Part shown: positions 16,099-49,585 of the stretch, piece by piece
Numbering within the stretch: the first letter of the stretch is position 1
Layout of the letters: every line of letters starts with the position of its first letter
Source: a virus
Length of the DNA: 64,000 bases
IMG/VR virus record: IMGVR_UViG_3300025770_000008
Location: 78,975 to 142,974 of that record
Strand: one strand, 5' to 3'
Made by a program: the position numbers and the translations under genes
Notes under the pieces: generated by a model
Told to the model about the DNA's origin: nothing
Seen by the model: the letters and a program-made list of their open reading frames with translations, nothing else
Databases searched by the model: none

Positions 16099-17397
16099 CT
16101 ACCTAGTCGTCTTTAGAAGTGTCGAGGTTGCTCTGGTAATCCCGCCGAGCGTAGGGGACTTCTTAGCCCTCACGATTCCGGCGTTCGTTGAGGGGACCGC
16201 CCCCTCAATGTAGTGCTCGTGGTCACGAATCGCACGAAGCAGGTCGTGGCTGTTAATCACGACGTCGTGTCCGCCAGGGCCACCGAAATCCACACGACCA
16301 CCCCCCGGCGGGGTAATGGTCAGGGCTCCGCCCTCGAACTGCATTCGTACAGCCCCTAGATTCATTGTGGCTTCAGCTGCCCTCATGTGTATCAGTTCGG
16401 TGCTTTCCAAGAGCAGTTCCCTGACCACCGCCTTCAGCCTGTTGGACTCCGCTATAGCCTCGATGAAGCTAGCTCCGAAGACAACTTTACCCTTTTGCCC
16501 TAGCTTGAGGTACAGCGACTCGGTTTCTACCTGGATATGGCCCTTCGACATCATGAAGCAGTCACCCTCTCGGGAGACCTGTACGGCGTACGTAACCGCG
16601 GGCACCTCGTCGCGCGACATCACGGTGCAGCTGAGCACCCCAATATTAGTCGCTAATAGTTCGTAGTCGTCCTGCTTGTTCCTGGCAAATGTGTGGTGCT
16701 TGCCAGCCTTCTCCGGGTCCAGCACATCGAACGTCAGCTGCCCGAAACGAACCTCCACCGCCGCTGCGGTGTCCTCGATGGACTCTTTGAAGTCGTACTC
16801 AATCAGCACAGCAACGGTGTCGTCGTCTTCCTCCAGGATAGTCGCGTGCCCCCACTCGATGCGCCCCTGCGGCGACCGGGCCTGATAGCGCTCGAAGTAG
16901 TCCCGGATGACATTGCCAACGGGGATGTACAGCCGCTGGGCGATACCCGTTGCCGCAATCTGGACGATGCCCCCGCGACGAAGGACAACACGGTTGCCAT
17001 CCTTGGTCGCCATCGCGATGTCGCCGGGCTCCATGTCCAAGCGGAAGCCCGAGAAGTCCGGCCCCTTCGAGGACTCGATGAGCGTAGGGGTGCCGTTCTT
17101 ATCGAAGACCTCCCCCTCGACGGACTGTGGGTTGGTAACGAACCCCATCAGCATGGACGTGCCGTCTGCTGACGTGAACACGTAGGCGTAGGCACCCACC
17201 TCGGGCATCACGTACACACCACCGCCGTGGTCGGGGTGGCAGTACAGCGAGGCAAAGGGCATCTCCGCATGAGGCTTGTGCGTGAACACCCCCATGAGGC
17301 TCACCGTGAACTCGGTGGTGTTCACATCGGTAACTTCGCACAGCTCCAGCCGCCCTGGGCGCGACGCCTGCTCAGGGGATTTAGAGAGCCCACTCAT
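16099..17397 (-). CDS. Baseplate spike / OB-fold-like tail protein
   Basis: 432 residues. Residues 14 to about 115 look like a beta-rich OB-type domain (RLELCEVTDVNTTEFTVSLM, then the turn-rich AYVFTSADGTSMLMGFVTNP). Next comes DGNRVVLRRGGIVQIAATG, a phrase I associate with baseplate or hub proteins. The C-terminus has regular short beta repeats (MQFEGGALTITPPGGGRVDF) like the trimeric needle of gpV/gp5-type spikes. The start overlaps the stop of the RNA polymerase gene (both at 17397), so they are co-transcribed. The assignment rests on fold-level pattern only. Confidence 0.55.
   Translation of the reverse strand: MSGLSKSPEQASRPGRLELCEVTDVNTTEFTVSLMGVFTHKPHAEMPFASLYCHPDHGGGVYVMPEVGAYAYVFTSADGTSMLMGFVTNPQSVEGEVFDKNGTPTLIESSKGPDFSGFRLDMEPGDIAMATKDGNRVVLRRGGIVQIAATGIAQRLYIPVGNVIRDYFERYQARSPQGRIEWGHATILEEDDDTVAVLIEYDFKESIEDTAAAVEVRFGQLTFDVLDPEKAGKHHTFARNKQDDYELLATNIGVLSCTVMSRDEVPAVTYAVQVSREGDCFMMSKGHIQVETESLYLKLGQKGKVVFGASFIEAIAESNRLKAVVRELLLESTELIHMRAAEATMNLGAVRMQFEGGALTITPPGGGRVDFGGPGGHDVVINSHDLLRAIRDHEHYIEGAVPSTNAGIVRAKKSPTLGGITRATSTLLKTTR
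16644..16658 (+). repeat. Dispersed palindrome copy 3 (TATTAGTCGCTAATA)
   Basis: Identical to copy 1. It lies inside the baseplate-like gene, in codons encoding LATNIG on the minus strand. Confidence 0.9.
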
Positions 17398-20300
17398 TAG
17401 TACGGGCTCTTGGAGCCTGAGTCGGGCTTACCGAACTCAGCTGTGTACGCAATGCCGGGAGCCGGGTGGACCCCATGGATGTCCGACTTCCAACCCTCGT
17501 TCGCCGCGCGGGTGAAGGTCTCCTTGAGCTTCCGGTACTGCAGTCGAGCAATCCAGTCCGTGGTCTGGTCCAGGGCCAGGGTCTCGACGCCGCGGAGAAC
17601 GGGGACGACCTTGACGGTCTCCTTCCCCTTGTTGGCTCGGTTGAGGGCGTTCACCTTCGTCAAACTCACGTAGTCATTACGGATGATGCCCTCCTCGTCG
17701 CCCACTTCACCGGGGTCTTCTACAACACCCAAGTTCGTAAGCGCGCGGACGACGACCTCGACGTTTCGCTTCTTGACCCCCGCCTCCGCATACACCCCGT
17801 GGACCTCGTCGGTCAGGTAACGCTGCACCCGGTCCAGGTTGGTCAGCGTCAATAGCTCTCGGGGGTCAACCGGCCCCGAGCTGAGGGCATCACCCTTCTT
17901 GACCGTAGCGCCCACCTTGAACTGGAGTGTCCGACCGTGCGGTATGTAGTGCTCCTCGCCGCCGACAGTGATGTCGTAACCGCCCACCGCGCTCTTCGCT
18001 ATCTTGCCCACGCGCCCGGGGACCTGAGCCAACGTGGCCTTCCCCGGCAGGGTCTGAGGAATCTTCAAGAGCTGCTTCACGCGTTCGATGCCACCCACCA
18101 CAGAGCTACCGCCCGCACCGGAAGCGCCGCCTGTGTGGAACACCCGCATACTCAGCTGCGTACCGACCTCACCGATAGCCTGACCAGCGATGACCCCGAT
18201 GTTTGTCCCGAGCGCAACGGGGCCACCCCCGTCCATAGCGCCGTAGCACTTCGCGCACATCCCCTGGTGGGACTCACACTTCGTCGGCGACCGGACAACC
18301 AGACCGTCCACACGCGCGGCCTTGAGACTTGTAACCATCTGCGGCGTGATGAGACTTCCTGCCCGGAACGACTGCCCCTTCGCCTTGACTCCCTTGACGA
18401 GAACGCGGTCTACAAGGTCGCTGTCCCCAATCTTCATGTGGATGCCCGTGGTCGTTCCGCAGTCCTCGACGGTGATGACCTGTGGGATGGCCGTGTTCAC
18501 AATCTGCTTGGAGAGCGCTCCCGGCTCACTCACGGACTGCACCTTCTCGATAAGCCCCTTCCGCGCACCGGACGACGCCGTCCAGTAGCCCGCGGTGGAG
18601 AGCCCTTCTGCGTAGGACTTAGTCACAGGAACAGGGATGATACGTCCGTCCGCGTTCTCCATCAGGAGGGGCGCGATGATGAGCTGCTGGAGCTGGGACC
18701 AGCCCGGCTTCACGCCCGCCTTGTACATGGTGTACAGCCGGTTCCCAGTAGCCTGCAGGTACTTCTCCGCGTCGTTTTTGATGTCAGCCGTCGCCTTTTG
18801 GTACAGCGCGACAACCTTGCCGTCCTGCTCTTTCCGTGTGCCGCCCGCCCCGCGGACCACCTTCTCGCGTGCCTGCGCGACCTTCAGGTGCTTATCCCGA
18901 ATCGTGCTCAGGGTATTGAAGTCGTCAGAATCAAAACTGAACCCGCTGCTGTAGGCGAACCCGAAGCCGAGGTCCTTCAGCTTGTCTACAGAGTTAGCGA
19001 ACTGCGCAGGATGGTCGGTGGCTAGGTCCCGCAGCACACCTTGGAGGCTCTTATTATTCAGGGTGAAGTCCGCATCCTCCAGCAGTTCCGCGGTTCGCAG
19101 ACTCGCAGGAAGGGCACCCGCAATCTTCAATCGCCCGGCGGTGGTCTTCTTCCCGTCCACTGTGACCACATCGGTCATGGCGATGTCGCCCTTGTTGGCC
19201 GCGTCGATGGCGTCCTTGTTGCTCGCGAACTTCTCCCGGGAGCGCTTCCCGAACTGCGTGAGCATGAACAGCCCCAGCTGCCCCTCCAGCGAGGGTTGGT
19301 ACATGACCTTCCCGGTCGAGGGGTTGAAGAGGTTCTTGCTGGGCATCATCTTGTACGCCTCGTCGACCGCGCCCTGCGAGATAGGCACGAACACCCCCAT
19401 CGCGTCCCCGTCGAAGTCAGCGTTGAAGCCCCCCACCACCAACGGGTGGATATGGATGGCCTTCTCGTCGTCGATGATGCGCGCCTTGAACGCCATGATG
19501 CCGAACTTGTGCAGCACCGGGTCTCGCTTGAAGAGGACCGGGCGCTTGGAGGCCACGACCGCGAGCGCCTTGTTCGCCAGCGACGTGTCCTTCTCGATTT
19601 CTTCCCGCGCCTGGAGAGGTGTGTAGCCCATGGCCACCATCTCCTTGACGACGAAGGGCCGGAAGATTTTCATCGCCCCCTTCTTCGGGAGGCCCATCTC
19701 GTCCAGGTGCAGGCTCATATCCGGGACGATGACCGACCGCATGGTCAGGTCCTGCTTGCGGTCGAGGATGGCCTTGTGGAAGTAGCTCTCCTTGGGCGAG
19801 GTGCGCCCTGAGAGGATGTTGAGGATGCCAGGGGGCCTGGGCTGCCCATCAGTCGTCAAACCCTGGTCAGAGGCCGTGGCGGTACCCATGAGTGCTTCGA
19901 CGGCGCTGTACAGTTCAGTGCGGAGCTTGAACAGCTCCGCGTCCGGCAGAACCCCTTTGGCTGCCTTCAGCTGGTCACTCAGCAACGAGACATCCCGGTA
20001 GAGCAGGTTGAGTCCGTCCACGTTGAGGTCACCCGCCTCCATCACAGAAATGGGGCGGAACTGCGGCGGAACGACCGGAAGGTTCTCCAGGACGTACGCC
20101 TCTCTAGCTGACAGCCCCGTCTTGTTGAGCATCAGGAGGTACTTGATTCTCTTGTTGACCTTGTCGAGGCTGCTGCGGCGAGCGGTCTTGATTTCTTCCT
20201 TGGCCGCGGTCAGCTCCTTGTCGACTTCGATGCCGGACAGTGCCGCTGCAAGGGCAGCGGGCCCGGTAGCCCCGCCCTCCTCTGTGACCTTGCCATCCTT

Positions 20301-23300
20301 GTCCAGCGAGACCTTCCCCGCGAGGATGCCGTCGTACTGCTTACCAGTGAGCCCGAGCAGCGACCGAATACCCTTCTCAAAGAGGGGGTTGGGCATGGAC
20401 TCAGCCAGGACCAAGTGGCTCCAGTTCTTCCCGCCAACGCCGCCTGTGATTTCCTCATCGAAGAGGCCGCCCTTCTCCGGGCGCAGGTCCTTACCACGGA
20501 CCACCTTGCCGCCGTCCTCCAACGCACCGGACGACATCTCAGTAATCTGCTTGTCGGTCATGGGGAGCACGACAAGCTCGTTGCCGTGCTTCTCGACGTT
20601 GACTCCGAGCCCGTTGAGGTACCCGAGAAACTTCTCGTACGCAAACGACGGGCGGGGCGCGGGAAGCATCTGCCCTGTCTGAATGGCCGTCCAGATTTCG
20701 TCCTGGGACCGGTCTGAGTTCCCAACCAGGAAGCCGCGAACGAAGTACCTGTGCGTATCCTCCACCTCCAAATTGAACAAGTACTTCCCCCGCCATTCCG
20801 GCAGGTCTCCCAAGCACCCAGCAGGCTCAACTGCGTCAACCGGGGTCTCCACCAATCCCGGGGCACCAGGAGCAGAAAACTCAACCAGCTTCTGCCCAAT
20901 AGGGGCCACCACATCGCAGGTCTTGTAAGACAAACTAGGGTGAAGGTACGGACCCAGCTTGCTCAAGAAGTGCTCTGCGGCCACTCCGTGCTTCTTGAGG
21001 TGGTCGACGTTGTCGTTGAAGTGCACCTCCGTCAGCCGCTCGATAGCCGCGATGGCAGACTTCCGCTCATCCGAGTTCATCGAGTAGACCGCAAGACCCG
21101 CCTGCACACCGCCGCCATTACTCAGCGAACGATACCCACAGCCATCGTCCTGGAACCAAATTGCCAATGACCTCAACGTCAGCAGGTCCCACACCTCCTG
21201 TGGGAAGCGCCTCTCCCCAGAGGCATAAAACTGACGATGCAATTTCAGGAACTCAGGCGTAGCGAAGCTGGACCACTCCACCATCTGCTGCCCACAGCTG
21301 AAGCCTTGGTACCCCGCGGTGTATTCCCGCAGCTCTCGGTGCGTGAACGAACTCAGTGCATCCGCCTTGAACTGGAGATACTCCCGCTGCTTCACCGAAT
21401 GGCGTTCCTGGAAGTAAGGAAACCGCGAAGTCTCCTTCTGCGCCATGTAACCATCCCCCAGGAGTGAGCCCAGCAGAAGGTCATGCTGGCCCTCCGAAAG
21501 CTCGTTTCCCCAGGTGAGTATGGCATCCACCCCAGGGCGGAGGTCTTTCGCCCACACCTTCTCCAGCTGCCCCTCGCGCCGAACGTAGAACTGGTGCTCC
21601 TCGGTACAGAGAACCGTCCCTTTCACGAAGGCAAACTCGCCGCTCCGCCTGCGGTGCGCCGTAACACGCACAAGCCGGTCCTGCTCCCCGTTACGCCTCC
21701 AGTAATTCTTGATGGGCCGGTAGCACAGCCCTTCTTCGTCCGACCACGTCAGCACCTTGACCGGGAGGCGATTGGTGACAATCTTTCCAATCTCGATTTC
21801 GCCTTGGTCGGTCAGCACCTTCTCGTGATACGGGAAGCACTTCCACGACAGAGCGTCGCGGATGTTGTTGACCGCGCCGTGGGCAATCATCGCGTAGAGG
21901 CCCAGCTCGCCGTACCGCTGAGCGCCGTCGTTACCACCGTAGGTACCTCGCGGCACCATGTTGGCGTTGTAAGCATGCCCGTAGCCGTGCGCGCGGGCAG
22001 ACAGCTTCTTGTCGACTTGGTGTTCCTGCTTGAGGATGTACTGGTGCCCCGTCATGACTGGGCCCAGGCTCTTCCCCGTCTCCGGGTCGAACAGCTCCGT
22101 CGTCTCCGACAGGCCCTTCTTCTCCAGGATTTGGTCAATGAGCCCCTTGTAACCGGTCTCGTACTCGTAGGGTTCAATCCAGATGCGCTTCGAGCCCTTC
22201 CCGGACTTGATTGTCCGGTAGTGCCCCTTGACCTGGACGATCTTGGTGGACACGTCGCCCACGCTGATGCGGTGCCCCTCGTCGCCATCGAAGTTCGAGA
22301 CCGCGTAGGGCTTCCCGTCCTCGACCGCTGCGAGCGTGATGGCGTTCTCCAGGACCTGCCCAGGATTGATGCGCCCAGGAACACCCGAGGGGTTCAGCAC
22401 AATCTCCAGCGGGGCACCATCGCCATCCCGGGGCATCTCCTCGTCCGGGAGGATGGCAACCACGACGCCTTTGTTCCCATGGCGTGAGGTCAGCTTGTCG
22501 CCGATGTCGGCCTCTTCTGCCGTCTTGACGTAAGCGACGACCTCTTTGCCGTTACGCACGACCTCCGTGACCACACCCGTGTACGGCTTGTTCCACGTGA
22601 GCGAGCGGTCCCTGTAGGGCTTGGCCAAGCTCTTGTGGATGCCCTTGAGCATGATTTGCTCTGCCGAAGGGTCCGCCTCCTTGAGCACTGTGGCAATCAC
22701 GTCACCAGGGCGGACGATTTCGCCACGCTTGATGACCCCATCCTCGTCGAGCTTGGCGGCGTTCGCGTCAGAGACAACCCCGGGGAAGTTCGCACGGAAC
22801 TTCTTCAGCCCCATCATCATCCCGGTGTCCAGGTACACACGCGGCTTGTGCAGGTGCTCACTGGTGAGCTTCTTGGCGGCCGTCTCACTAATGGTGATGC
22901 CGTCCTCGTAGTTGAGCCCCTTGTACGCCAGATAGCCCACGCGCAGATTGGTGCCCATCGAGAGGACGCCGCCCTTGGTGAAGCTAGTGTCAGCGATGAC
23001 GTCGTCCTTCTTGACCTCGTCGCCCTTCTGCACCAGGGGCTTGCTGGTAACGAACGCCTTGGAGTCGTTGAGGGGGTAGTTATCGTAGAGCTGGACAACG
23101 TGCTTCTTGCCGTCGTCCCCTGCCACCACAATGCGCTCGGCTTCGACCGACTTCACCGTCCCGGACACCGGGCTGGCGTGTGACTGCATTTGGCCGAGAA
23201 TCTTCTCCCAGGTGTCCCATGCCGGCTGGTCCGAGCCAGAAGCCACCTGAAGAAGGGGCTCCTCGGGGTTCTTCAGCGGAACCGTCTGCTCCATGTGACG

Positions 23301-24833
23301 CGCAGCCATTCCCGCACGGTTCGCTTGGTCAGAGGGCAAGAACGGTATGAGGTTCGCAGTGAATGAGAACATCGCCTTGGGAGATCGCAGAACATAGTCC
23401 ACCTCGTTGGCTTTCACATTGGTGGGGTCACCCTCACCCCCGCGGATGACCGTGATGAGGTCTTTCCGAGGCTTGAAGGTCTTTCCGTCTCCCGTGTCGT
23501 ACTGGTCGGGAAAGGCCAGCGTCTTCCCGTGCAGCTCCGTGGGGGAGACATCCGCCCACTTGCTGTTCTTCACGTCCCACACCTTGATGACCGGCTCGTT
23601 GCCTCGCTTGGAGACACCCAGCGTCAGGTGCGTGGTGATACCACTTCGGGTCCCCTCCGGGCTGTGAAACGGGTCAGTGAAGCCCATCTGGCTAGAGTCC
23701 AGCATCTTGGCAGAATGACTGACCGCGTTCTCCGTGCTGATACCGCCGGTGCCCATCAGGGTGGCTTTGAGGTGCCCGCCAATCATGTCGACCGGGTTCA
23801 GCTGTGAGGGGCGCTGAGACAGGGAGGTCGAGGTGAAGAACGACTTGACCGGGACGTTGAAAACGTCAGGGGTCACAATCTTGCGGATGTCGTCACGGCG
23901 GTCCAGGTTGTTGCGGATCTTCCGCTCCACCCGACGACGCGAGTTCTTGATGCGCTCCGGGAGGTGGTCGGCCACCGTCCACAGCTCCTTGAACCGGAGG
24001 GAGTCACGGTTGTCCACCTCGGCCGTCCCACGAGAAACGCCGAGCAGCTTATTAGCCGCTAATAGCAGCGCCTCGCCGGTGACGGTCGTGAAGCCCTTGC
24101 CCAAGGTGACGCTGGTGGTGTCCGGGCGAAGCTCGGTCGCCGCGAACGACTCACGTACAACATCCTCGACCTCCTCGGGAGTGGTCGCTTCGGACCGGGG
24201 GTTCAGGGTCTTGGCGAGCTTCGCCATCTGCCCTTTGCGCTGAAGGCGTGCGGCGGTCTGGTAGACCTCCGGCCCCCAGGCCGTCTCCATCTCCTCGGCG
24301 CTGATACCCAGTGTCTGAAGAAGGGGCACGAGGGGCGTGTTGGTCGTCCCGTGGGTGGCCAGGAACTGGCGCTTCTTGGGGTCGAAGCTCACACGGAACC
24401 CGCGGCCCTTGCTCAGGTTGAACTGGGTCTCCAGTCCGCCGTTAGCCTTCATACGTGTGTACGCGCCGGCCTTGAGGCGCCACTGGTTGTCTGCTTGGTA
24501 CTCCGTCCCGTCCACGATGAACGAGTACCGGCGGGTGTAGTGCGGCAGATTCAGCAGCCGCACGCCCTTGGTTTTCGACACCACTTTGCCGGAGGCTTTG
24601 TCCACCAGCTCCATGTCCGCGAGGATGGGGACCGCCCATGTCCGATTGCGGACCCTGGCCCGCTTTTGAGCGTGTATGTCGTCGATGTGGACGTTGGGCC
24701 CAGCATAGACGTTTGTAGCGCGCAAGATGCGCGTCCGCCCCTCAATCGGGAGGGTGTCTTTGAGAACCTGGATTGTGCCGTCTTTGAGGGCTTGCATCGC
24801 CCTCTCTGGGTCCAGGGTATGGATATCCGCCAT
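17397..24833 (-). CDS. Fused beta/beta-prime multisubunit-type RNA polymerase, intein-containing
   Basis: 2478-aa precursor, about 2104 aa after splicing, carrying both large subunits of a bacterial-type RNA polymerase in one chain. Beta half: MVPRGTYGGNDGAQRYGELG and DALSWK-SDR match the conserved beta C-terminus (QRFGEMEV, VKSDD). Beta-prime half: LRPEKGGLF, the catalytic Mg-binding NADFDGDAM (about 19400-19424), a trigger-loop/bridge region NIGVIAGQAIGEVGTQLSMR, and the second zinc site CESHQGMCAKC. The N-terminal beta-prime zinc-binding domain is missing: GLFDEEITGG runs straight on without its cysteines. Start at 24833 (MADIHTLD) follows an AGAGG; an ATG 39 nt upstream is possible. The gene lies inside the structural operon. 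A virion-carried or late polymerase is inferred. Confidence 0.93.
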   Translation of the reverse strand: MADIHTLDPERAMQALKDGTIQVLKDTLPIEGRTRILRATNVYAGPNVHIDDIHAQKRARVRNRTWAVPILADMELVDKASGKVVSKTKGVRLLNLPHYTRRYSFIVDGTEYQADNQWRLKAGAYTRMKANGGLETQFNLSKGRGFRVSFDPKKRQFLATHGTTNTPLVPLLQTLGISAEEMETAWGPEVYQTAARLQRKGQMAKLAKTLNPRSEATTPEEVEDVVRESFAATELRPDTTSVTLGKGFTTVTGEALLLAANKLLGVSRGTAEVDNRDSLRFKELWTVADHLPERIKNSRRRVERKIRNNLDRRDDIRKIVTPDVFNVPVKSFFTSTSLSQRPSQLNPVDMIGGHLKATLMGTGGISTENAVSHSAKMLDSSQMGFTDPFHSPEGTRSGITTHLTLGVSKRGNEPVIKVWDVKNSKWADVSPTELHGKTLAFPDQYDTGDGKTFKPRKDLITVIRGGEGDPTNVKANEVDYVLRSPKAMFSFTANLIPFLPSDQANRAGMAARHMEQTVPLKNPEEPLLQVASGSDQPAWDTWEKILGQMQSHASPVSGTVKSVEAERIVVAGDDGKKHVVQLYDNYPLNDSKAFVTSKPLVQKGDEVKKDDVIADTSFTKGGVLSMGTNLRVGYLAYKGLNYEDGITISETAAKKLTSEHLHKPRVYLDTGMMMGLKKFRANFPGVVSDANAAKLDEDGVIKRGEIVRPGDVIATVLKEADPSAEQIMLKGIHKSLAKPYRDRSLTWNKPYTGVVTEVVRNGKEVVAYVKTAEEADIGDKLTSRHGNKGVVVAILPDEEMPRDGDGAPLEIVLNPSGVPGRINPGQVLENAITLAAVEDGKPYAVSNFDGDEGHRISVGDVSTKIVQVKGHYRTIKSGKGSKRIWIEPYEYETGYKGLIDQILEKKGLSETTELFDPETGKSLGPVMTGHQYILKQEHQVDKKLSARAHGYGHAYNANMVPRGTYGGNDGAQRYGELGLYAMIAHGAVNNIRDALSWKCFPYHEKVLTDQGEIEIGKIVTNRLPVKVLTWSDEEGLCYRPIKNYWRRNGEQDRLVRVTAHRRRSGEFAFVKGTVLCTEEHQFYVRREGQLEKVWAKDLRPGVDAILTWGNELSEGQHDLLLGSLLGDGYMAQKETSRFPYFQERHSVKQREYLQFKADALSSFTHRELREYTAGYQGFSCGQQMVEWSSFATPEFLKLHRQFYASGERRFPQEVWDLLTLRSLAIWFQDDGCGYRSLSNGGGVQAGLAVYSMNSDERKSAIAAIERLTEVHFNDNVDHLKKHGVAAEHFLSKLGPYLHPSLSYKTCDVVAPIGQKLVEFSAPGAPGLVETPVDAVEPAGCLGDLPEWRGKYLFNLEVEDTHRYFVRGFLVGNSDRSQDEIWTAIQTGQMLPAPRPSFAYEKFLGYLNGLGVNVEKHGNELVVLPMTDKQITEMSSGALEDGGKVVRGKDLRPEKGGLFDEEITGGVGGKNWSHLVLAESMPNPLFEKGIRSLLGLTGKQYDGILAGKVSLDKDGKVTEEGGATGPAALAAALSGIEVDKELTAAKEEIKTARRSSLDKVNKRIKYLLMLNKTGLSAREAYVLENLPVVPPQFRPISVMEAGDLNVDGLNLLYRDVSLLSDQLKAAKGVLPDAELFKLRTELYSAVEALMGTATASDQGLTTDGQPRPPGILNILSGRTSPKESYFHKAILDRKQDLTMRSVIVPDMSLHLDEMGLPKKGAMKIFRPFVVKEMVAMGYTPLQAREEIEKDTSLANKALAVVASKRPVLFKRDPVLHKFGIMAFKARIIDDEKAIHIHPLVVGGFNADFDGDAMGVFVPISQGAVDEAYKMMPSKNLFNPSTGKVMYQPSLEGQLGLFMLTQFGKRSREKFASNKDAIDAANKGDIAMTDVVTVDGKKTTAGRLKIAGALPASLRTAELLEDADFTLNNKSLQGVLRDLATDHPAQFANSVDKLKDLGFGFAYSSGFSFDSDDFNTLSTIRDKHLKVAQAREKVVRGAGGTRKEQDGKVVALYQKATADIKNDAEKYLQATGNRLYTMYKAGVKPGWSQLQQLIIAPLLMENADGRIIPVPVTKSYAEGLSTAGYWTASSGARKGLIEKVQSVSEPGALSKQIVNTAIPQVITVEDCGTTTGIHMKIGDSDLVDRVLVKGVKAKGQSFRAGSLITPQMVTSLKAARVDGLVVRSPTKCESHQGMCAKCYGAMDGGGPVALGTNIGVIAGQAIGEVGTQLSMRVFHTGGASGAGGSSVVGGIERVKQLLKIPQTLPGKATLAQVPGRVGKIAKSAVGGYDITVGGEEHYIPHGRTLQFKVGATVKKGDALSSGPVDPRELLTLTNLDRVQRYLTDEVHGVYAEAGVKKRNVEVVVRALTNLGVVEDPGEVGDEEGIIRNDYVSLTKVNALNRANKGKETVKVVPVLRGVETLALDQTTDWIARLQYRKLKETFTRAANEGWKSDIHGVHPAPGIAYTAEFGKPDSGSKSPY
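20718..21839 (-). other. Intein in RNA polymerase (Hint plus LAGLIDADG domains)
   Basis: 374 residues between DALSWK and SDRSQDE, at the beta motif corresponding to VKSDD. It begins with Cys1 (CFPYHEKVLTDQGEIEIG) and carries TEEHQFY as the block B-type histidine. LAGLIDADG-like motifs are LLGSLLGDGYM and LAIWFQDDGCGY. The end is HRYFVRGFLVGN, with a canonical terminal Asn followed by +1 Ser. The whole insertion stays in frame with both flanks. Confidence 0.93.
24050..24064 (+). repeat. Dispersed palindrome copy 4 (TATTAGCCGCTAATA)
   Basis: Perfect 7-base arms around one central C. It lies inside the RNA polymerase gene, near its 5-prime end, encoding LLLAANK on the minus strand. Confidence 0.9.
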
Positions 24834-25124
24834 CGGGGAAAAGCCTCTGTTTTGGGGCGTACCTTCGCCCATACTAGCAGCGCACGGCCTGCGCTAAACA
24901 GGTTCTCCTTCTTGGTATAAGAATTACGAACAAGGAAGAATACTCTTCCGACGTTCGCAGTCACTGTGTGAGAGGAGCCCAGTTTTTTATGAAAGCAATC
25001 ACAAACACGTCCACAACGAAGGACCTGGAACGCGGGACCGAAGACGCGCTCACCCCCGTTCAGAAGTAGGGTGAACCCAAAATTCATCCCGCTGAGGCCG
25101 GGGGTAAGCTGTCCGCTTGCCCCG
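24834..25124. other. Divergent intergenic region
   Basis: 291 bp between the leftward RNA polymerase gene and the rightward Cys-rich gene. It holds the rightward promoter described at 24893 and AT-richer sequence (24930-25020) than its surroundings. I saw no second gene and no clear matching promoter pointing left, so leftward transcription may read in from the portal operon. Confidence 0.6.
24893..24921 (+). promoter_or_regulatory. Predicted phage promoter P1
   Basis: GCTAAA (24893-24898), a 17-nt spacer, then TATAAG (24916-24921), followed by AATTACGAAC. The arrangement and the downstream AAnTAnGAAC match the promoters at 49187 and 49795. It points to the small Cys-rich gene at 25125. Confidence 0.6.
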
Positions 25125-37410: not shown

Positions 37411-40209
37411 TTGGGTAAGTTCGCCGTCCTTCCTCCTACCATGCTCATCAAGACGCGGCAGGAGGCCGAAGTCGCCCTCGCCCAGCTGCGCATTGGGAAG
37501 GGCGGCAAGCGCTCTCGCGTAGTCGCGATTGACACTGAGACCACCGGCTTGAGCCGGCAACGCGACTACGCGCTCATCATGAGCCTTTCTACCGGGCCGA
37601 ACCGCTACGCGATATGGCCCGAGGCGTTCTCCTACTTCACGGAGTACCTAGAAGACCCTGAGCTACAGCTGCTCATGTGGAACGCCAACTTCGACACCTG
37701 GATGCTGCGGAACGCCGGCATCGACATCTACCGCAACTGCGACCGCACGACCTACCGCGTCTTCGACGCCATGATTATGCACGCGCTGGATTACGACGAC
37801 CGGCCGCACACACTGAAGTACGCAGCCAAGGAGATGCTCGGCATCGTTATGGTGGACTTCAAGGCCACCTTCGGCGCGCAGATGCGCACCCGGAAGCTGC
37901 ACGAGATATTCCTGGACCCCGCCAATGAGCCTGTCGTGGCGAACTACGCGGGGCTCGACGCCTACTCAACCTTCGCCCTGGCAGTCGCGCTCCAGAAGAA
38001 ACTATTAGCGACTAATACTGGTGTCGAGGAGTACCCCACCCTGTGGGACTACTTCCGGCACACCGAGGTCCCCTTCACCCGGGTCCTCTTCGAGTGCGAG
38101 AGCAACGGCATCGGGCTGGACAAGCACCGGCTCATCGCAATCGCGCCTGAACTCGACCGCAAGATGATTGCCCTCATGCGGTGGTTCGTGAAGAAGACCA
38201 AGAAGGTGGGCATCAACCTCAACTCAAACCCGCAGATGATTGAGCTGTTCTTTGGGGACCTGGGGTACAACCCCCCCTCGTACACCGAGAAAGGTGCCCC
38301 ACAGCTCCCGCAGAAGTGGTTGTCGCGCATCGCTTCTGATGGTTGTGTCTACGCGGACAAGTTGCTCGCCTACCGCGACCTGAAGAAGAAGCAAGCCACC
38401 TACGTGCGTGGGCTGCTCAAGTTGGAGCACCGCGGGCGCATCCACACCACGTACAAGCAAGCTGGTGCTCGTACCGGCCGCCTATCGAGCGCGGATCCGA
38501 ATTTACAAAATCAACCTGGGTACATCCGCTTCGCCTACATCGCGGGCGAAGAAAAAGTACTAATTGCTAGGGATTACTGCTTCGCAACCGGCACCCTGGT
38601 TGACACCCCGCTCGGCCCTCGGCCGATTGAATCTTTGCAGGTGGGGGACCCTGTCTTCTCCTACGACCCTGACAGGCGGGTTCCTGTAGTAGGTACCGTA
38701 GATGAGCACCACGCTGTCGGCGTTGAGCCCGTCGTTGAGATTGAGCTGGACAACGGAGAGCGGATTGTCTGCACGGGCGAGCACAAGTTCATGGTTTGTC
38801 CTGAGAAGTACGTGGCAGACCCCATTGGCGTAGAGGCGCAGGACCTAATCCCTGGAATGCGCCTGCTTCCTCTGCGGAGGGCGTACGGGGGGACGAACCG
38901 AAATTACGAGCATCTCTACGCCCATCAAGCGGTCGTTTATTCCAAGACGCACACAGAGGTAGCGGCCTGGGCGATGGGCGCCCGCCCTGAGGGCTACCAC
39001 ACGCACCACAAGGACGGAGACAGCCTAAACAACCACCCCGATAACCTGGAGTACCTGGACGCCCGCCTGCACCTCTCCGAGCACGCGAAGGAGTCTTGTA
39101 CGCGTCAATGGCGGGACCCTGAGACGCGTGCAGCCATGCAGTCGGGTATCCGTCAGAGCATCGCCGACCGTGGGGGCTACAACGGGAAAAACAATCCCCG
39201 TCATGGCGACCGTAGGGGGCGGGTGTACACCGCCTGCCTGTTCTGTGACCAACCGATAGAGACATTCGCTTCTACGAAGAAGAAGTACTGCTCCCGTACC
39301 TGTTACTTCGACCACAAAAGACAGGGAGGAAACCACAAGGTCGTAGCTGTCCGGCAGCTGCAAGTAAACCAGCAGGTGTGGAGCATCGGAGTAGCGCCGC
39401 ACAGAAACTACGCGCTGGCTGCAGGGGTCTTCGTAAAGAACAGCCAACTGGAGATGCGCATCGTCGCGCACTTCAGCCAGGAGCCCAATCTCATCCAGGC
39501 TATCCGTAGTGGGCAGGATGTCCACTGCTCCTGCGCCGCGCTCATGTTCAAGCTGCCTTACGACGAAATCATGGCAGCTCGGGCACGGGACGACGAGATC
39601 GACGAACTGAAAAAGGCCGGGCACCCGTACGAGCCGCTGAGTCCCCGAGAGATAGAGTGCCTCACGGCCCGGAAGGCGGCCAAGGCCATCAACTTCGGCC
39701 TGATTTACGGCATGGGTCCGCAGAAGCTCAGCCGAGAGCTGCGGGTCAAGGTGGAGGTCGCCAAGGACTACATCCGCACGTACTTCCAGCAGATGCCCGG
39801 GGTGCAGGACCACCTTCGTCGGGTCATTGGTTTAGCCGAAGAGTCCGGGGTAGTCACCACCATTCTCGGTCGGCGGCGGCAAATCCCGGGCATCTGGTCC
39901 CACCTACGCGGGGATATCGCCCAGGCGGAACGCCGCGCCAAGAACACTCCCATCCAGGGGACCGCGGCGGACGTCACCAAGATGGCCATGATTAAGACCT
40001 ACGAGGATGACTGGCTCTACGAGATGGGCTACCGCATGCTCCTACAGGTCCACGATGAAATCGTCGGGGAGGCCCCAATCTCCGCGGCTCGTAATCCCCG
40101 TTTTGTTGGACGCCTCCAGCACCATATGGAACACTCGTTGCCATATGACCTGCTGGTCCCCCTAGACACCACCGGAAAAGACGCGGCCGACTGGGCTGGG
40201 TGCAAGTAA
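37411..40209 (+). CDS. Family A DNA polymerase, intein-containing precursor
   Basis: 932-aa precursor, about 644 aa after splicing. Start TTG at 37411 with CGGAG upstream; ATG at 37441 is an alternative. The 3-5 exonuclease shows VVAIDTETTGL, NANFDTWML and YAGLDAYSTF. Polymerase: TGRLSSADPNLQNQP; motif A RDYSQLEMRI, split by the intein after DY; motif B RKAAKAINFGLIYGMG; motif C LQVHDEIVGE. The Tyr of motif B is present. There is no 5-3 exonuclease domain, as usual for replicative phage polymerases. The DNA encoding LLATNTG contains palindrome copy 7. Confidence 0.95.
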   Translation: MGKFAVLPPTMLIKTRQEAEVALAQLRIGKGGKRSRVVAIDTETTGLSRQRDYALIMSLSTGPNRYAIWPEAFSYFTEYLEDPELQLLMWNANFDTWMLRNAGIDIYRNCDRTTYRVFDAMIMHALDYDDRPHTLKYAAKEMLGIVMVDFKATFGAQMRTRKLHEIFLDPANEPVVANYAGLDAYSTFALAVALQKKLLATNTGVEEYPTLWDYFRHTEVPFTRVLFECESNGIGLDKHRLIAIAPELDRKMIALMRWFVKKTKKVGINLNSNPQMIELFFGDLGYNPPSYTEKGAPQLPQKWLSRIASDGCVYADKLLAYRDLKKKQATYVRGLLKLEHRGRIHTTYKQAGARTGRLSSADPNLQNQPGYIRFAYIAGEEKVLIARDYCFATGTLVDTPLGPRPIESLQVGDPVFSYDPDRRVPVVGTVDEHHAVGVEPVVEIELDNGERIVCTGEHKFMVCPEKYVADPIGVEAQDLIPGMRLLPLRRAYGGTNRNYEHLYAHQAVVYSKTHTEVAAWAMGARPEGYHTHHKDGDSLNNHPDNLEYLDARLHLSEHAKESCTRQWRDPETRAAMQSGIRQSIADRGGYNGKNNPRHGDRRGRVYTACLFCDQPIETFASTKKKYCSRTCYFDHKRQGGNHKVVAVRQLQVNQQVWSIGVAPHRNYALAAGVFVKNSQLEMRIVAHFSQEPNLIQAIRSGQDVHCSCAALMFKLPYDEIMAARARDDEIDELKKAGHPYEPLSPREIECLTARKAAKAINFGLIYGMGPQKLSRELRVKVEVAKDYIRTYFQQMPGVQDHLRRVIGLAEESGVVTTILGRRRQIPGIWSHLRGDIAQAERRAKNTPIQGTAADVTKMAMIKTYEDDWLYEMGYRMLLQVHDEIVGEAPISAARNPRFVGRLQHHMEHSLPYDLLVPLDTTGKDAADWAGCK
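38003..38017 (-). repeat. Dispersed palindrome copy 7 (TATTAGCGACTAATA)
   Basis: Inside the DNA polymerase gene, after the exonuclease motif YAGLDAY and before the polymerase core. Confidence 0.9.
38578..39441 (+). other. Intein in DNA polymerase (Hint plus HNH domains)
   Basis: 288 residues between RDY and SQLEMRI, inside catalytic motif A. It starts CFATGTLVDTPLGPRPIESL with Cys1 and has TGEHKFMV as block B. The insert carries an HNH-type endonuclease (HHKDGDSLNNHPDNLEYL) and a treble-clef cysteine group (CLFCDQPI, YCSRTCYF), unlike the LAGLIDADG type of the other two inteins. It ends with ALAAGVFVKN, terminal Asn, then +1 Ser. Confidence 0.94.
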
Positions 40210-43186: not shown

Positions 43187-43960
43187 GTGAAGGTGCTCAT
43201 TCGTACCACCAAGGGTACAACGAAGCAGGTAACGGGCAGGCCCTTGGTACGCGGATTGGCGTTCCATCCTTCCCTCTCAAACACGCCGACCAACGGCAAC
43301 CTGCACAACATCACACACTTGGAGAGCGGGCTATCCGTGCTCCACCAAGTTCCGCATGACGCGATACCCCGGATAGCTGAGATGCTCGCGGTGGTGAGCT
43401 GGGATACCAGCTCTTCCATCATCTTCGACTCGGCCGAGCACACCAACACCCTGGAAGACTGCCTGGAGTTCCTCGTGGCATACAAACATCGATTCAGCCA
43501 ACGCTGTGAGGCGGATGTAGCCAAGGACCTGGGTGGCAAGGTCCAGCCTGCGAGCGGGTCGCTCCCCGGCTATAAGCGGGACATCCTCACCGCGGACATC
43601 CTGGCCGAGCACAAGACCTCCGAGCCGGGGTCGCAGTCGGCCGACTACCGGGATGTCGACCTGAGGGACCTTGAGTTCCATAGACGTCAGGCGCTCAGCA
43701 TCGGCAAGGTGCCCGCCTACATCTTCGCCTTCGAGGGTCAGGACAGCATCGTGTTCCTCCCCGCGGATGAACTCGACGACGATTTGGCGGGCATGAACTT
43801 CCACGAGGTCGACGTTTCCTCGCAGGTGGTTTGGCGGCTGCACAGGGCGACCGGCCTGAAGCTGAACGAGACCACTTGGCTCAAGCTGATTCTCGCCAAG
43901 CGGGTCTGGCTGGGTGTGCCCTACCTGGACTTTCTGGAACTGGCGAAAGGCAACTTCTGA
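43187..43960 (+). CDS. Possible PD-(D/E)XK-type nuclease
   Basis: 257 residues from GTG at 43187. The segment KRDILTADILAEHKTSEPGS has D-x(n)-E-x-K spacing with ADILAEHK as a plausible catalytic strand, followed by a basic helix (DLEFHRRQALSIGKVPAYIF) that may be the QxxxY-like helix with FHRRQ. The N-terminal 110 residues are unassigned. The position, between RecA and the macro-nuclease fusion, fits a recombination or DNA-processing nuclease. Evidence is motif-level only; it could be unrelated. The TGA stop overlaps the next ATG (TGATG). Confidence 0.4.
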   Translation: MKVLIRTTKGTTKQVTGRPLVRGLAFHPSLSNTPTNGNLHNITHLESGLSVLHQVPHDAIPRIAEMLAVVSWDTSSSIIFDSAEHTNTLEDCLEFLVAYKHRFSQRCEADVAKDLGGKVQPASGSLPGYKRDILTADILAEHKTSEPGSQSADYRDVDLRDLEFHRRQALSIGKVPAYIFAFEGQDSIVFLPADELDDDLAGMNFHEVDVSSQVVWRLHRATGLKLNETTWLKLILAKRVWLGVPYLDFLELAKGNF

Positions 43961-45147
43961 TGGTTCAGATGTGCACCGGGGACATCTTCGCAAGCACCGC
44001 GGACGCCCTGGTAAACCCAGTAAACTGTGAGGGGGTCATGGGTGCCGGGCTGGCACTGCAGTTCAAGAAGCGCTTTCCCGAGAACTTCACAGCGTACGCC
44101 AAGGTGTGCCAGGACGGCGACCTCCACCCCGGTAAGCTCTTCACCTTCGAGGACCCCGCGTCGAACAGGCTCATTGTAAACGCCGCGACCAAGGCCGAGT
44201 GGCGTAACCCGTCGAACCTAGACTGGGTAGTCAGCCTAGGGGAAGAGTTGCGCCAGCTAACGGAGGAGCGAGACATCAAGCGGCTCGCTGTCCCGGCGCT
44301 TGGCACCGGTTTGGGCACGCTCCCGTGGCTCGCGGTCCGGGACATTTTGGCGGAGAGCCTTATGACCTCCTCCGTCGAAATTGAGCTGTACGAGCCGAGG
44401 GGCTACGAGCCGCCCACACTGCCCCAGGAGGGGTACTACGCCTCGGCCTGCCTCAGCCACACGGGGAAGCCCGCCGCCAACGCGGACTACTCTCTCGTCT
44501 CCTACATCCGGTTCTCCCGGGGAGACGACGCCAAGACCTACGACCGCAAGATTGGGTGCTACCACCCTTCCGCTGTGAGCCTTGAGGGATGCAACCGCGC
44601 CCTGGCTTACGAGCGGCTTGCGGTTACCCCGAGGCCCGTCCCCAGGACGCACGGCTTCGGAGTCAACGTCTTCGACCTCGGGGACGCAATCCACGACGCC
44701 ATCCAAGGCCGCCTCTCCAAGGTGACCGGAGTTCATGGACAGCGTTTCCATCCTGAGGTCGAAATCAGCTACCCCCCGCTGGGGCTCTACGGACACTGCG
44801 ATGGCGTGTTCGGGCAGCTGGTGGTGGAAATCAAGAGTGTGAGCAAGAACATCTTCAAGGGGCTCAAGGCCCCGATGGCTAGCCACATTCGCCAACTGCA
44901 CTGCTACATGCTGGCTCTGGATATTCCATACGGAGTCATCCTGTACGTGTGCCGAGACAACGGAGAATTCCGAGAGTTTCCCGTCCACTTCAGGGCGGAC
45001 GTGCTGGCGCGCATCGCCACCACGATTCACAACATCGAAGCCCACTTGCGACGCGGAGTGATTCCTGACCAGGAACCGAACTCGTTCATCTGTTCACGCT
45101 GCAAATTTCTCTACACGTGTAAGCCGGACCTAGCCAAAGATGAGTGA
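43960..45147 (+). CDS. DarG-type macrodomain fused to Cas4/RecB-like nuclease
   Basis: 395 residues. Residues 1-150 are a macrodomain of DarG/TARG1 type: GDIF at 7-10, ALVNPVNCEGVMGAGLALQF with Asn22, TKAEWR with Lys78 in the place of the catalytic Lys of DarG, and VPALGTGLGTLPW. This class removes ADP-ribose from DNA bases. Residues 155-395 are Cas4/RecB-like: GDAIHD (His245), GHCDGVFG (Asp281), VVEIKS (Glu290, Lys292), QLHCY (Gln312, Tyr316), and cysteines 211, 378, 381 and 387, suited to a 4Fe-4S cluster. Both halves look intact. An anti-DarT/DNA-repair role is inferred. The stop overlaps the next start. Confidence 0.85.
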   Translation: MVQMCTGDIFASTADALVNPVNCEGVMGAGLALQFKKRFPENFTAYAKVCQDGDLHPGKLFTFEDPASNRLIVNAATKAEWRNPSNLDWVVSLGEELRQLTEERDIKRLAVPALGTGLGTLPWLAVRDILAESLMTSSVEIELYEPRGYEPPTLPQEGYYASACLSHTGKPAANADYSLVSYIRFSRGDDAKTYDRKIGCYHPSAVSLEGCNRALAYERLAVTPRPVPRTHGFGVNVFDLGDAIHDAIQGRLSKVTGVHGQRFHPEVEISYPPLGLYGHCDGVFGQLVVEIKSVSKNIFKGLKAPMASHIRQLHCYMLALDIPYGVILYVCRDNGEFREFPVHFRADVLARIATTIHNIEAHLRRGVIPDQEPNSFICSRCKFLYTCKPDLAKDE

Positions 45148-47599: not shown

Positions 47600-47956
47600 A
47601 TGCCGCACAGCATCGCTGTCCATGCCCCCATCAACGTGGCCGCGCTCGACGAGCGTGACCCGGAAGCGGGGAACGCCAGTCACAGCTACGCCATTCAGTA
47701 CGGCGGGCCTGACGACGTCTGCTACGTCCAGTTCCAGCACGGCCCGCGTGGGGTGGAGGGATCGACCCCCGGCGTCTTCGACGACGCCCTGCTCGCCATC
47801 ATCGAGGACCGGTTGATCGGGTTCCAGTCGGGTCCGTACGCGTGCCCGGAAAACCAAGCCGCGCTCAATGCTGTTCGGGATGCCCGCGCTGCGCTGAGTT
47901 CGCGCGTGGCCAACCGCATGGCCAAGAGCGTGCTCGGGGTAAACGCGGTCCACTGA
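47600..47956 (+). CDS. Acb2/Tad1-like protein (putative anti-CBASS/anti-Thoeris sponge)
   Basis: 118 residues from ATG at 47600. The segments VQFQHGPRGVEGSTPGVFDD, LLAIIEDRLIGFQSGPYACP and ENQAALNAVRDARAALSSRV match a family I recall as Acb2/Tad1 hairpin-domain proteins (consensus GP..E.G.NG, LL.I..DRL..FQ.G..AC, EN..AL..L..A..WL..R). Such proteins sequester cyclic nucleotide or gcADPR signals from CBASS and Thoeris defence. The typical Trp is replaced by Leu/Ser and the C-terminal RGVEGT by KSVLGV. It is last in the replication block. Fold assignment is moderately sure; ligand binding is inferred. Confidence 0.6.
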   Translation: MPHSIAVHAPINVAALDERDPEAGNASHSYAIQYGGPDDVCYVQFQHGPRGVEGSTPGVFDDALLAIIEDRLIGFQSGPYACPENQAALNAVRDARAALSSRVANRMAKSVLGVNAVH

Positions 47957-47962
47957 CCTCGT

Positions 47963-47992
47963 TGCAAAACGGGCATTGGTTTTTGAGATAGG
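47963..47992 (+). promoter_or_regulatory. Predicted phage promoter P3
   Basis: TGCAAAA (47963-47969), a 17-nt spacer, then GATAGG (47987-47992) followed by AATTCC. It overlaps the end of the Acb2/Tad1-like gene's intergenic space and serves the 65-aa gene at 48033. The -35-like part is identical to P4-P6; the -10-like part is the weakest of the four. Confidence 0.6.
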
Positions 47993-48032
47993 AATTCCAG
48001 CGGCGTTCATACCCCGTCGCTGGAAGGTTCCC

Positions 48033-48230
48033 ATGTTGGACGCCAAGCACCTCTCCAAGTCCATGCAGCACTTCTGCACGGCTCTCCCCACCCGCTTTCA
48101 GTGGACCCCCCACAACCTTTGGGCGCACCCCCTCTCCGAGCTGCTGTTCCAGCTCGGGTACGAGGACGAGGGGAACTGGGTACACGAAGCAACCATTCCC
48201 ATCCACGAACGCGGTACCGGTCTGGGCTAG
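48033..48230 (+). CDS. Small unknown protein
   Basis: 65 residues from ATG at 48033, with GGAAGG 6 nt upstream; an upstream in-frame ATG at 47976 lies inside promoter P3 and is rejected. The sequence MLDAKHLSKSMQHFCTALPT is followed by an aromatic- and His-rich middle. It is a self-contained unit with promoter P3 before it and terminator T1 after it. Function unknown. Confidence 0.65.
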   Translation: MLDAKHLSKSMQHFCTALPTRFQWTPHNLWAHPLSELLFQLGYEDEGNWVHEATIPIHERGTGLG

Positions 48231-48240
48231 TCCCCGGCCC

Positions 48241-48270
48241 GAAGCGCCCCCTCCTGGGGCGCTTCTTCTT
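48241..48270 (+). terminator. Rho-independent terminator T1
   Basis: GAAGCGCCCC and GGGGCGCTTC form a perfect 10-bp stem around CTCCT, followed by TTCTT. It separates the 48033 gene from the ncRNA unit. Confidence 0.9.
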
Positions 48271-48274
48271 ACCC

Positions 48275-48303
48275 TGCAAAAACCGCGCATGTCTGGGTAT
48301 AAA
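48275..48303 (+). promoter_or_regulatory. Predicted phage promoter P4 (drives large ncRNA)
   Basis: TGCAAAA (48275-48281), a 16-nt spacer, then TATAAA (48298-48303), followed by GACAATGAAG, matching P5 and P6 over about 40 nt. No open reading frame of the local codon style follows for 850 nt, so it is taken as the ncRNA promoter. Confidence 0.75.
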
Positions 48304-48309
48304 GACAAT

Positions 48310-49160
48310 GAAGGGACACGTATAGCTTCGGCTGTTCAGGGAACTTCTGGTTGTATGGAATCGTCAGGATAACTCGCGGTGACGCGGGGAAAGGTTTGGC
48401 CCGCTCCGGGTTGGACCACCGAGTAGTCGGCCCATCTATACAAGTCTGAGTCTGCCCTCGTGAGGGGTCGCTGGTGAAGAGCCGGTGGAGAATTGTGCAG
48501 GAGTGGTGGCCCCGCGGCGGCGGGATAAAGTGACCGGGCGGAGAAATCCGTGGTCGCGGAAGCTGGGCTGGTACCCCGGCTGCCATGCATCCAAATCCAA
48601 CACAAGTGCTCGGGTAACAGATAGCGTACGTGAACAATCTGTGAGGAGGCAGCTCCAGGCAGGTCGTACGAAGTTCGATAGGGTGTGAGTTCTTTAGTCG
48701 GGAAACCGGCAGCCCTTGAAGAACCGATAAATCGGGTGACTGACCCGAGAATGTCACGAGATGGTGTGGGAGTTCCCTATGGTCAAAAGCCATGGGCCCG
48801 CTGGTAAGGCGCCATCTCTAGGAGAAAAACCGGTTAGGAGCCGGACTACGCATTTCACGCGAAGCTGCAATCAGCCCTTACCCGGGTACTGTCGAAAGAT
48901 GCCTAATCGTCTGCCCTCCATGGGGAACGGACGCACCTAAAGCTCGCAAGGCTAAGGGTGTCAGTTGAAGAGCCGTAGGAGTGGGCCGCAAACCTATTCT
49001 GAGGGGACACTGCTGAGTAGACGTATCCGCTAATGGTAGTAAACCCGGCTTCGGTCGGCTCTACCGGCATTGTATGGCTACTGGGGAGACCCAGTGGATA
49101 GGGCCCTGAAAAGGGGCTCAAAGGCTGTACGCGAAAGGGGGTAATTCTCACCCTTTTCTT
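48310..49160 (+). ncRNA. Large structured non-coding RNA (about 850 nt), GOLLD/ROOL-class candidate
   Basis: The stretch between promoter P4 and terminator T2 lacks a credible ORF and is full of short stems. I found GTCGG-GAAA-CCGGC at 48697-48710, inside a GTTCTT/AAGAAC pairing (48689-48694 with 48719-48724). Other hairpins are CCGA-TAAA-TCGG at 48724, GTGAC/GTCAC at 48737-48757, GCTG-CAAT-CAGC near 48863, CCGGC-TTCG-GTCGG at 49045-49058 inside GGTAG/CTACC, and ACTGGG-GAGA-CCCAGT at 49080-49095. GNRA and UUCG loops this dense mark a folded RNA. Length, phage setting and own promoter resemble the GOLLD and ROOL ornate RNAs. Identity with either is not established. Ends are approximate. Confidence 0.75.
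49134..49160 (+). terminator. Terminator T2 of the ncRNA (weak)
   Basis: AAAGGG (49134-49139) pairs with CCCTTT (49151-49156), followed by TCTT. An alternative longer-range pairing GGGGTAA with TTACCCC overlaps it, so this end could switch between two structures. Confidence 0.5.
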
Positions 49161-49168
49161 ACCCCTAT

Positions 49169-49183
49169 TATTAGCCGCTAATA
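49169..49183 (+). repeat. Dispersed palindrome copy 9 (TATTAGCCGCTAATA)
   Basis: Perfect arms, extended by a further A/T pair on each side to 17 bp (49168-49184). It sits between terminator T2 and promoter P5, just 2 nt before the TGCAAAA box, an operator-like position. Confidence 0.92.
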
Positions 49184-49186
49184 ACG

Positions 49187-49216
49187 TGCAAAACGGGTAC
49201 CCCTTTAAGGGATAAG
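49187..49216 (+). promoter_or_regulatory. Predicted phage promoter P5
   Basis: TGCAAAA (49187-49193), a 17-nt spacer, then GATAAG (49211-49216) followed by AACTATGAAC. The palindrome copy 9 abuts its upstream edge. It serves the 63-aa gene and perhaps the two membrane peptides that follow. Confidence 0.75.
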
Positions 49217-49238
49217 AACTATGAACAAGGAGGATTAC

Positions 49239-49430
49239 ATGGATTTCATTGACCCGAAGAAGTGTCCTTGGTTCCAGGAAATCTGGGACATCCTGGAGAA
49301 CCCGAGGCCGGGCGGAGTGGAGCGAGTGAAGGAGCTGACCAAGCTCATCTCGGACCGCTCCAAGGTCCGGACGGAAGCGTACAACGCGGACTTGTCCGCT
49401 CGAATCGAAGCGATTAACAACCGGGGCTAG
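49239..49430 (+). CDS. Small unknown protein
   Basis: 63 residues from ATG at 49239, with a full AAGGAGG 6 nt upstream; this favours it over the ATG at 49221, which lies in the promoter's conserved downstream element. The sequence MDFIDPKKCPWFQEIWDILE is followed by charged helices. It is the first gene of the P5 unit. No family recognised. Confidence 0.7.
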   Translation: MDFIDPKKCPWFQEIWDILENPRPGGVERVKELTKLISDRSKVRTEAYNADLSARIEAINNRG

Positions 49431-49468
49431 TCCCCCACCAAGCCCCGCTGGGGCAGAACGGCTGAGAG

Positions 49469-49585
49469 TTGAAGAAGTTCGTAGAGAAGTGCATTCCGAT
49501 GGCCCTCGGGGCCAGCCTGCTCATCGTCGTCCCCGCCTTCCTGGCGTGGGGCAGGGCAGCGGCCCTCATCATGGGCGGAGGCTGA
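49469..49585 (+). CDS. Tiny single-span membrane peptide
   Basis: 38 residues from TTG at 49469, or 28 from ATG at 49499. The lysine-bearing start KKFVEKCIPMALGASLL runs into a hydrophobic span ending LAWGRAAALIMGGG. It is followed by GGAGG and the second membrane peptide, whose ATG lies one base past its stop. Holin-like or envelope-modifying roles are possible, but no family was recognised. The start is uncertain. Confidence 0.45.
   Translation: MKKFVEKCIPMALGASLLIVVPAFLAWGRAAALIMGGG

What the first reader, a model, noticed from the sequence alone, without database searches (positions are those of the whole stretch)
48275..49160. An approximately 850-nt structured non-coding RNA with its own promoter
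No gene-like ORF is present for 850 nt in an otherwise packed genome. The region starts at a strong copy of the phage promoter family and ends at a terminator-like hairpin. Visible hairpins include ones capped by GAAA, GAGA and UUCG loops, nested pairings (GTTCTT/AAGAAC; GGTAG/CTACC) and possible pseudoknots. Size and phage context resemble GOLLD and ROOL ornate RNAs, but the sequence was not recognised and could be a new class.
Basis: partly seen in the sequence, partly recalled or inferred. Interest (0 to 1): 0.87.

Follow-up and report, generated by a model that had tools for sequence, protein, structure and literature searches.

The report
Divergent GOLLD cage-forming phage RNA
The 850-base gene-free stretch in this virus of bacteria encodes a distant but complete relative of GOLLD, a known giant phage RNA whose studied relative assembles into a hollow RNA cage; it is unusual because the virus around it has almost no tRNA genes, although GOLLD is normally found among them.

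Summary
Window 48275-49160 holds no gene-like frame. It starts at one of 11 copies of a phage promoter family, follows a strong terminator hairpin, and folds better than shuffles (z -4.75).

The 'new class' reading is wrong. The default Rfam search is silent, but the permissive search matches GOLLD (RF02032) end to end at 48757-49154 (137.3 bits, E 8e-38, gathering score 150). 87 of 97 consensus pairs are kept, 43 of them by changes on both sides.

Rfam models only the 3' domain. I aligned the 5' domain of 18 other GOLLD RNAs, which covary strongly. A model built without the window finds 48353-48445 as its only significant hit (44.9 bits, E 9e-10). This is therefore a full-length, divergent GOLLD RNA, nearest to those of mycobacteriophages.

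Three departures are of interest. There is no tRNA in the linker, and the 143-kb contig has at most one weak tRNA match; 10 of 11 other GOLLD-bearing records have 18-59. One P21 hairpin, probably P21b, a half-shell contact, is missing. The near-invariant terminal loop has one extra base.

Most likely it assembles into a GOLLD-type RNA cage during infection. Cage formation is inferred and the cargo is unknown.

The parts
48241..48270 (+). strong terminator-like hairpin with U-rich tail closing the upstream gene, just before the RNA's promoter
   Evidence: fold -21 kcal/mol, z -5.86; read in the sequence as GAAGCGCCCC-CUCCU-GGGGCGCUUC UUCUU
48275..48303 (+). promoter: TGCAAA (48275-48280), 17-nt spacer, TATAAA (48298-48303); start of transcription predicted at about 48310
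   Evidence: one of 11 family copies on the contig, 0.1 expected; start site is inference
48310..49160 (+). full-length GOLLD RNA gene (about 850 nt)
48310..48756 (+). GOLLD 5' domain (cap domain of the cage in the solved relative)
   Evidence: contains the conserved 5' block at the usual distance from the 3' domain
48353..48445 (+). conserved 5'-domain block: closing helix GUAUGG/CUAUAC around three hairpins
   Evidence: covariance model R1 built from 18 other GOLLDs without the window: 44.9 bits, E 9.4e-10, no other significant hit in 64 kb; model pairs 92.4% kept, covariation 0.785 vs 0.255 shuffled
48757..49154 (+). GOLLD 3' domain, Rfam RF02032 positions 1-416
   Evidence: 137.3 bits, E 8.1e-38; 87 of 97 pairs standard, 43 changed on both sides
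48821..48866 (+). linker that carries a tRNA-like element in most other GOLLDs; here about 46 nt and tRNA-free
   Evidence: no T-arm and no tRNA; fold no better than chance
48942..48952 (+). highly conserved GCUCGCAAGGC hairpin loop (L20 by my mapping to the solved structure)
   Evidence: alignment with other GOLLDs
48978..49000 (+). single P21 hairpin (loop CCGCAAA, P21a-like); the second hairpin of P21 (model 247-263) is missing
   Evidence: cmscan alignment; same gap in L023, L065, L077; local fold
49035..49065 (+). helix GGUAG/CUACC with an added UUCG-capped hairpin in its loop
   Evidence: cmscan alignment and the sequence
49133..49158 (+). terminal hairpin (P27 equivalent) with loop GUAAUUCUCA, one base longer than in the relatives aligned; also terminator-like
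49187..49216 (+). next copy of the promoter family, ahead of the 69-aa gene at 49221

Best explanation
The region is a single-gene transcription unit that makes a full-length, divergent GOLLD RNA. Transcription starts at the phage promoter at 48275, probably by the RNA polymerase the virus itself encodes (inference), and ends near 49160. The RNA folds into the GOLLD 5' (cap) and 3' (ring) domains. By homology with the solved GOLLD it should then assemble with copies of itself, without protein, into a hollow RNA cage. Shown here: membership in both domains, the conserved pairing, the promoter family, the absence of tRNA in the linker and its near-absence on the contig. Inferred: transcription during infection, cage assembly, and that whatever the cage does needs no tRNA carried in its own linker. 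My guess at the role is a compartment or decoy that holds a host or phage macromolecule; I hold that guess at about 0.3.
For: Rfam RF02032 matches end to end, E 8.1e-38. 87 of 97 family pairs are standard here, 43 by changes on both sides. A 5'-domain model trained without the window has its only significant hit at the right place, E 9.4e-10, and finds 26 of 27 GOLLD loci. The distance between 5' block and 3' domain, 328 nt, falls in the range of most others, about 286-334. A tree of 3' domains places it with two mycobacteriophage GOLLDs, support 0.90. Promoter family. Solved GOLLD env-38 is a 14-mer cage with 5' cap and 3' ring (PMC12286853).
Against: The score is below Rfam's gathering cut-off. 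One P21 hairpin (probably P21b) is missing, which in the solved structure makes one of the two self-kissing contacts between half-shells. The near-invariant terminal loop has one extra base. No transcript has been seen. Two further contigs with the same sequence (L006, L007) are the same virus, so no close relative tests selection on it directly.
Confidence: 0.85

Rival explanations
1. A new class of ornate RNA that only looks like GOLLD.
For: Default Rfam thresholds give no match anywhere in the window; blastn finds nothing in 50,697 phage records.
Against: Full-length GOLLD match at E 8e-38, independent 5'-domain match, and 43 doubly changed but still paired positions.
Confidence: 0.01
2. 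A decaying or remodelled GOLLD that still folds but no longer makes the standard cage, for example half-shells only.
For: One P21 hairpin absent, extra base in the terminal loop, shortened loop of the last-but-one helix, long branch in the tree.
Against: Mycobacteriophage GOLLDs L065 and L077, whose relatives are present in dozens of phages, lack the same hairpin. 87 of 97 pairs are kept, and a promoter copy sits directly at its 5' end.
Confidence: 0.15
3. A tRNA-delivery or tRNA-processing RNA, as suggested for GOLLD by its tRNA-bearing linker and tRNA-island setting.
For: 22 of 31 compared GOLLD copies (near-identical ones counted) have a tRNA T-arm in the linker; 10 of 11 other GOLLD-bearing records carry 18-59 tRNA matches.
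Against: This linker has no tRNA and ARAGORN finds no tRNA in the window or in the other four stretches of the 143-kb contig; the one Rfam match is 31 bits and 54 nt. A tRNA island could lie outside the contig.
Confidence: 0.1
4. A protein-coding stretch, for example the 174-aa minus-strand frame 48269-48793.
For: The frame is open.
Against: No family match; long chance frames are common at 62% G+C; the substitution pattern is compensatory pairing.
Confidence: 0.01

Closest known systems
GOLLD RNA (Rfam RF02032; solved as env-38 14-mer, PMC12286853)
   Same: Complete 3' domain with 87 of 97 consensus pairs, conserved GCUCGCAAGGC, CUAAU, GAGUAG and GUGGAU elements, homologous 5' domain, total size about 850 nt, phage genome.
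   Different: 13 bits below the gathering score, one P21 hairpin absent, one extra base in the terminal loop, no linker tRNA, no tRNA island.
GOLLD of mycobacteriophages (Send513/Papyrus group L077/L091; Mclasvirinae, the Bongo, Rey and M. abscessus prophage group, L065, L085-L090)
   Same: Nearest in the 3'-domain tree (support 0.90); L065 and L077 also lack one P21 hairpin. Send513 also has it in a DNA-replication gene block with no adjacent tRNA genes.
   Different: L065 and L077 keep a tRNA-like linker; the Mclasvirinae ones lie among tRNA genes (Bongo record: 18 tRNA matches). Sequence identity to the window is too low for blastn to link them.
ROOL RNA
   Same: Large phage RNA that forms a cage (literature, PMC12286853).
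   Different: No ROOL match here even at E 10.

Membership tests
GOLLD | Conserved 3' domain secondary structure (Rfam RF02032) | tested here: met
   Positions 1-416 of 416, E 8.1e-38; 87/97 pairs standard, 3 not, 7 deleted
GOLLD | 5' domain upstream of the 3' domain | tested here: met
   Model R1 trained on 18 other GOLLDs: 44.9 bits, E 9.4e-10 at 48353-48445
GOLLD | Score above Rfam's gathering cut-off (a curator's annotation threshold, not a biological feature) | tested here: not met
   137.3 vs 150 bits. I do not treat this as defining: the GOLLDs of Erythrobacter phages L02 and XM05, with 5' domain and linker tRNA, score 141.9 and 120.4, and the cryo-EM study collected members at a cutoff value of 1e-5 (PMC12286853)
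GOLLD | Phage or prophage location | tested here: met
   IMG/VR virus contig with terminase, primase, DnaB-type helicase, PolA and RNA polymerase
GOLLD | tRNA in linker or tRNA island nearby (frequent, not universal, so not defining) | tested here: not met
   several accepted members also lack a linker T-arm (L061, L069, L070, L079)
GOLLD | Second P21 hairpin (probably L21b in the solved structure; not defining) | tested here: not met
   Model positions 247-263 deleted; also in L065, L077 and, less cleanly, L023, which all score above the cut-off
GOLLD | Self-assembly into a multimeric cage | not testable with these tools
   needs refolding, mass photometry and cryo-EM
ROOL | Match to the Rfam ROOL model | tested here: not met
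   no match at E up to 10

The most novel reading that the evidence does not exclude
A GOLLD cage RNA that works without any tRNA link, in a virus with essentially no tRNA genes and its own RNA polymerase, and with a changed contact between the two half-shells. It would show that the conserved function lies in the cage and not in the linker tRNA.
Probability: 0.35. Interest if true: 0.55.

Novelty: new member of a known kind. Interest (0 to 1): 0.4.

Why it matters
GOLLD function is an open question, and the main clues have been tRNA in the linker and tRNA islands nearby. A complete GOLLD in a nearly tRNA-free virus is a natural control for that idea. Members lacking the second P21 hairpin predict which cage contact is dispensable. 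The case also shows that default Rfam thresholds miss real GOLLDs, and that the 5' domain can be modelled and used to rescue them.

Tried and rejected
Default-threshold Rfam scan: no match, misleading. blastn of the region against phages: none. Stanwilliamsviridae-type Streptomyces phages and Brevibacterium phage Cantare, linked by weak primase similarity, have no GOLLD. Pattern hits in three bacterial genomes (L011-L013) were chance: no GOLLD match. I first thought the single P21 loop might hold a 4-nt self-complementary stretch (GGCC in L065 and L077, AGCU in L023); in the window's own predicted hairpin the GGCC straddles stem and loop, so I do not claim it. The linker was checked for a tRNA remnant: no T-arm, and its fold is no better than chance. 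ROOL and a protein-coding reading were considered and rejected.

Full report
Observation. The 850-nt stretch is real. No frame tested in it has a known family. It is delimited by a strong terminator-like hairpin of the upstream gene at 48241-48270, a promoter copy at 48275, and a terminal hairpin at 49133-49158, with another promoter copy at 49187 before the next gene. The promoter family TGCAAA-17-GGATAAGAACTATG occurs 11 times on the 143-kb contig, always on the + strand, where a first-order Markov model of the sequence gives 0.1. The copy at the RNA is the variant TATAAAG. The strand folds 4.75 standard deviations better than shuffles. The generic sigma-70 and terminator scans call nothing here, so the start and end of the transcript are predictions.

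Identity. The Rfam scan at gathering thresholds is empty. The permissive scan of 47900-49500 gives GOLLD, RF02032, over all 416 positions at 48757-49154, 137.3 bits, E 8.1e-38, against a cut-off of 150. Reading that alignment pair by pair, 87 of 97 consensus pairs are standard, 3 are not and 7 are deleted; 43 of the 87 differ from the consensus on both sides. The alignment is fitted to the structure, so this count leans towards it, but the E-value does not depend on it.

The 5' half. Rfam models only the 3' domain. I collected about 30 other GOLLDs from IMG/VR and from phages (Sinorhizobium phage Phosso, DSS3_MAL1, Phaeobacter MD18, Xanthomonas X1, two Erythrobacter phages), all with Rfam matches of 120-214 bits. 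A block of their 5' domains aligns: an outer helix around three hairpins. In 18 of them, without the window, 92.4% of cells pair, 15 of 19 pairs change on both sides, and the covariation score is 0.785 against 0.255 shuffled and at most 0.16 when slid. A covariance model from that alignment finds one significant place in the 64-kb window, 48353-48445, 44.9 bits, E 9.4e-10 (E-values from this model are rough), and 26 of 27 GOLLD loci. Its outer helix here is GUAUGG/CUAUAC. The block lies 328 nt before the 3' domain, as in most relatives (286-334). The RNA is therefore a full-length GOLLD.

Relatives. In a tree of 3' domains without linker the window groups with two mycobacteriophage GOLLDs, L065 and L077, support 0.90, on a long branch. 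L077 is the RNA of the Send513/Papyrus group, and L065 belongs to a group spread over M. abscessus prophages and Bongo- and Rey-like phages. Two IMG/VR contigs (L006, L007) carry the same RNA as the window where they overlap it and are the same virus.

Departures. (1) The linker, which has a tRNA T-arm in 22 of the 31 GOLLD copies compared (near-identical copies counted), has none here. The contig has no tRNA by ARAGORN and one 31-bit Rfam match, whereas ten of eleven other GOLLD-bearing records have 18-59 tRNA matches; the exception is Send513 with none. (2) One of the two P21 hairpins, model positions 247-263, is missing, as in L065 and L077 and, less cleanly, L023. By mapping to the solved structure this is probably P21b, whose loop makes a self-kissing contact between half-shells (PMC12286853); that mapping is mine. 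(3) The terminal loop reads GUAAUUCUCA, one base longer than in the relatives aligned; it is the same in L007 and L006, so not an assembly slip of one contig.

Mechanism. The solved GOLLD forms a 14-mer RNA cage with the 5' domain as cap and the 3' domain as ring (PMC12286853). In a Lactobacillus brevis prophage GOLLD accumulates in lytic growth and is dispensable for phage production (cited in PMC7567579). By homology I expect this RNA to be made during infection and to assemble. The virus encodes a fused beta-beta' RNA polymerase, which may read the promoter family; that is inference. What the cage holds is unknown for the whole family.

Verdict. Ordinary as to class, but a divergent member that standard annotation misses. 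The tRNA-poor setting and the missing P21 hairpin make it useful for the open question of what GOLLD does.

Noticed in passing
window 17397-24872, - strand: A 2490-aa fused beta-beta' RNA polymerase (Rpb2 and Rpb1 domains, NADFDGD at about residue 1817) with a LAGLIDADG endonuclease segment at about residues 1131-1275; best relatives are Vibrio phages D69/D181 at 31% identity.
   Followed up: partly
window 37411-40206, + strand; window 4263-7271, - strand: DNA polymerase A carries an intein with an HNH endonuclease; the terminase carries a LAGLIDADG segment. The virus seems rich in inteins.
   Followed up: partly
window 43831-45147, + strand: A protein with an N-terminal Macro domain and a C-terminal Cas4-type exonuclease region.
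   Followed up: no
contig positions 80, 896, 8835, 13734, 14415, 23332, 29891 (L081, L082) and window 47963, 48275, 49187, 49795: Eleven copies of a promoter-like motif TGCAAA-17-GGATAAGAACTATG, all on + strand, 0.1 expected.
   Followed up: yes
L086 774-917, L087 802-918, L088 807-950: Hypothetical proteins annotated in mycobacteriophages Reindeer, Estes and Rey lie inside the stretch that matches the GOLLD RNA, and are probably not genes.
   Followed up: no
L023, L065, L077: GOLLDs with a single P21 hairpin have loops holding a self-complementary tetranucleotide (AGCU, GGCC, GGCC), a possible stronger self-kissing contact.
   Followed up: partly
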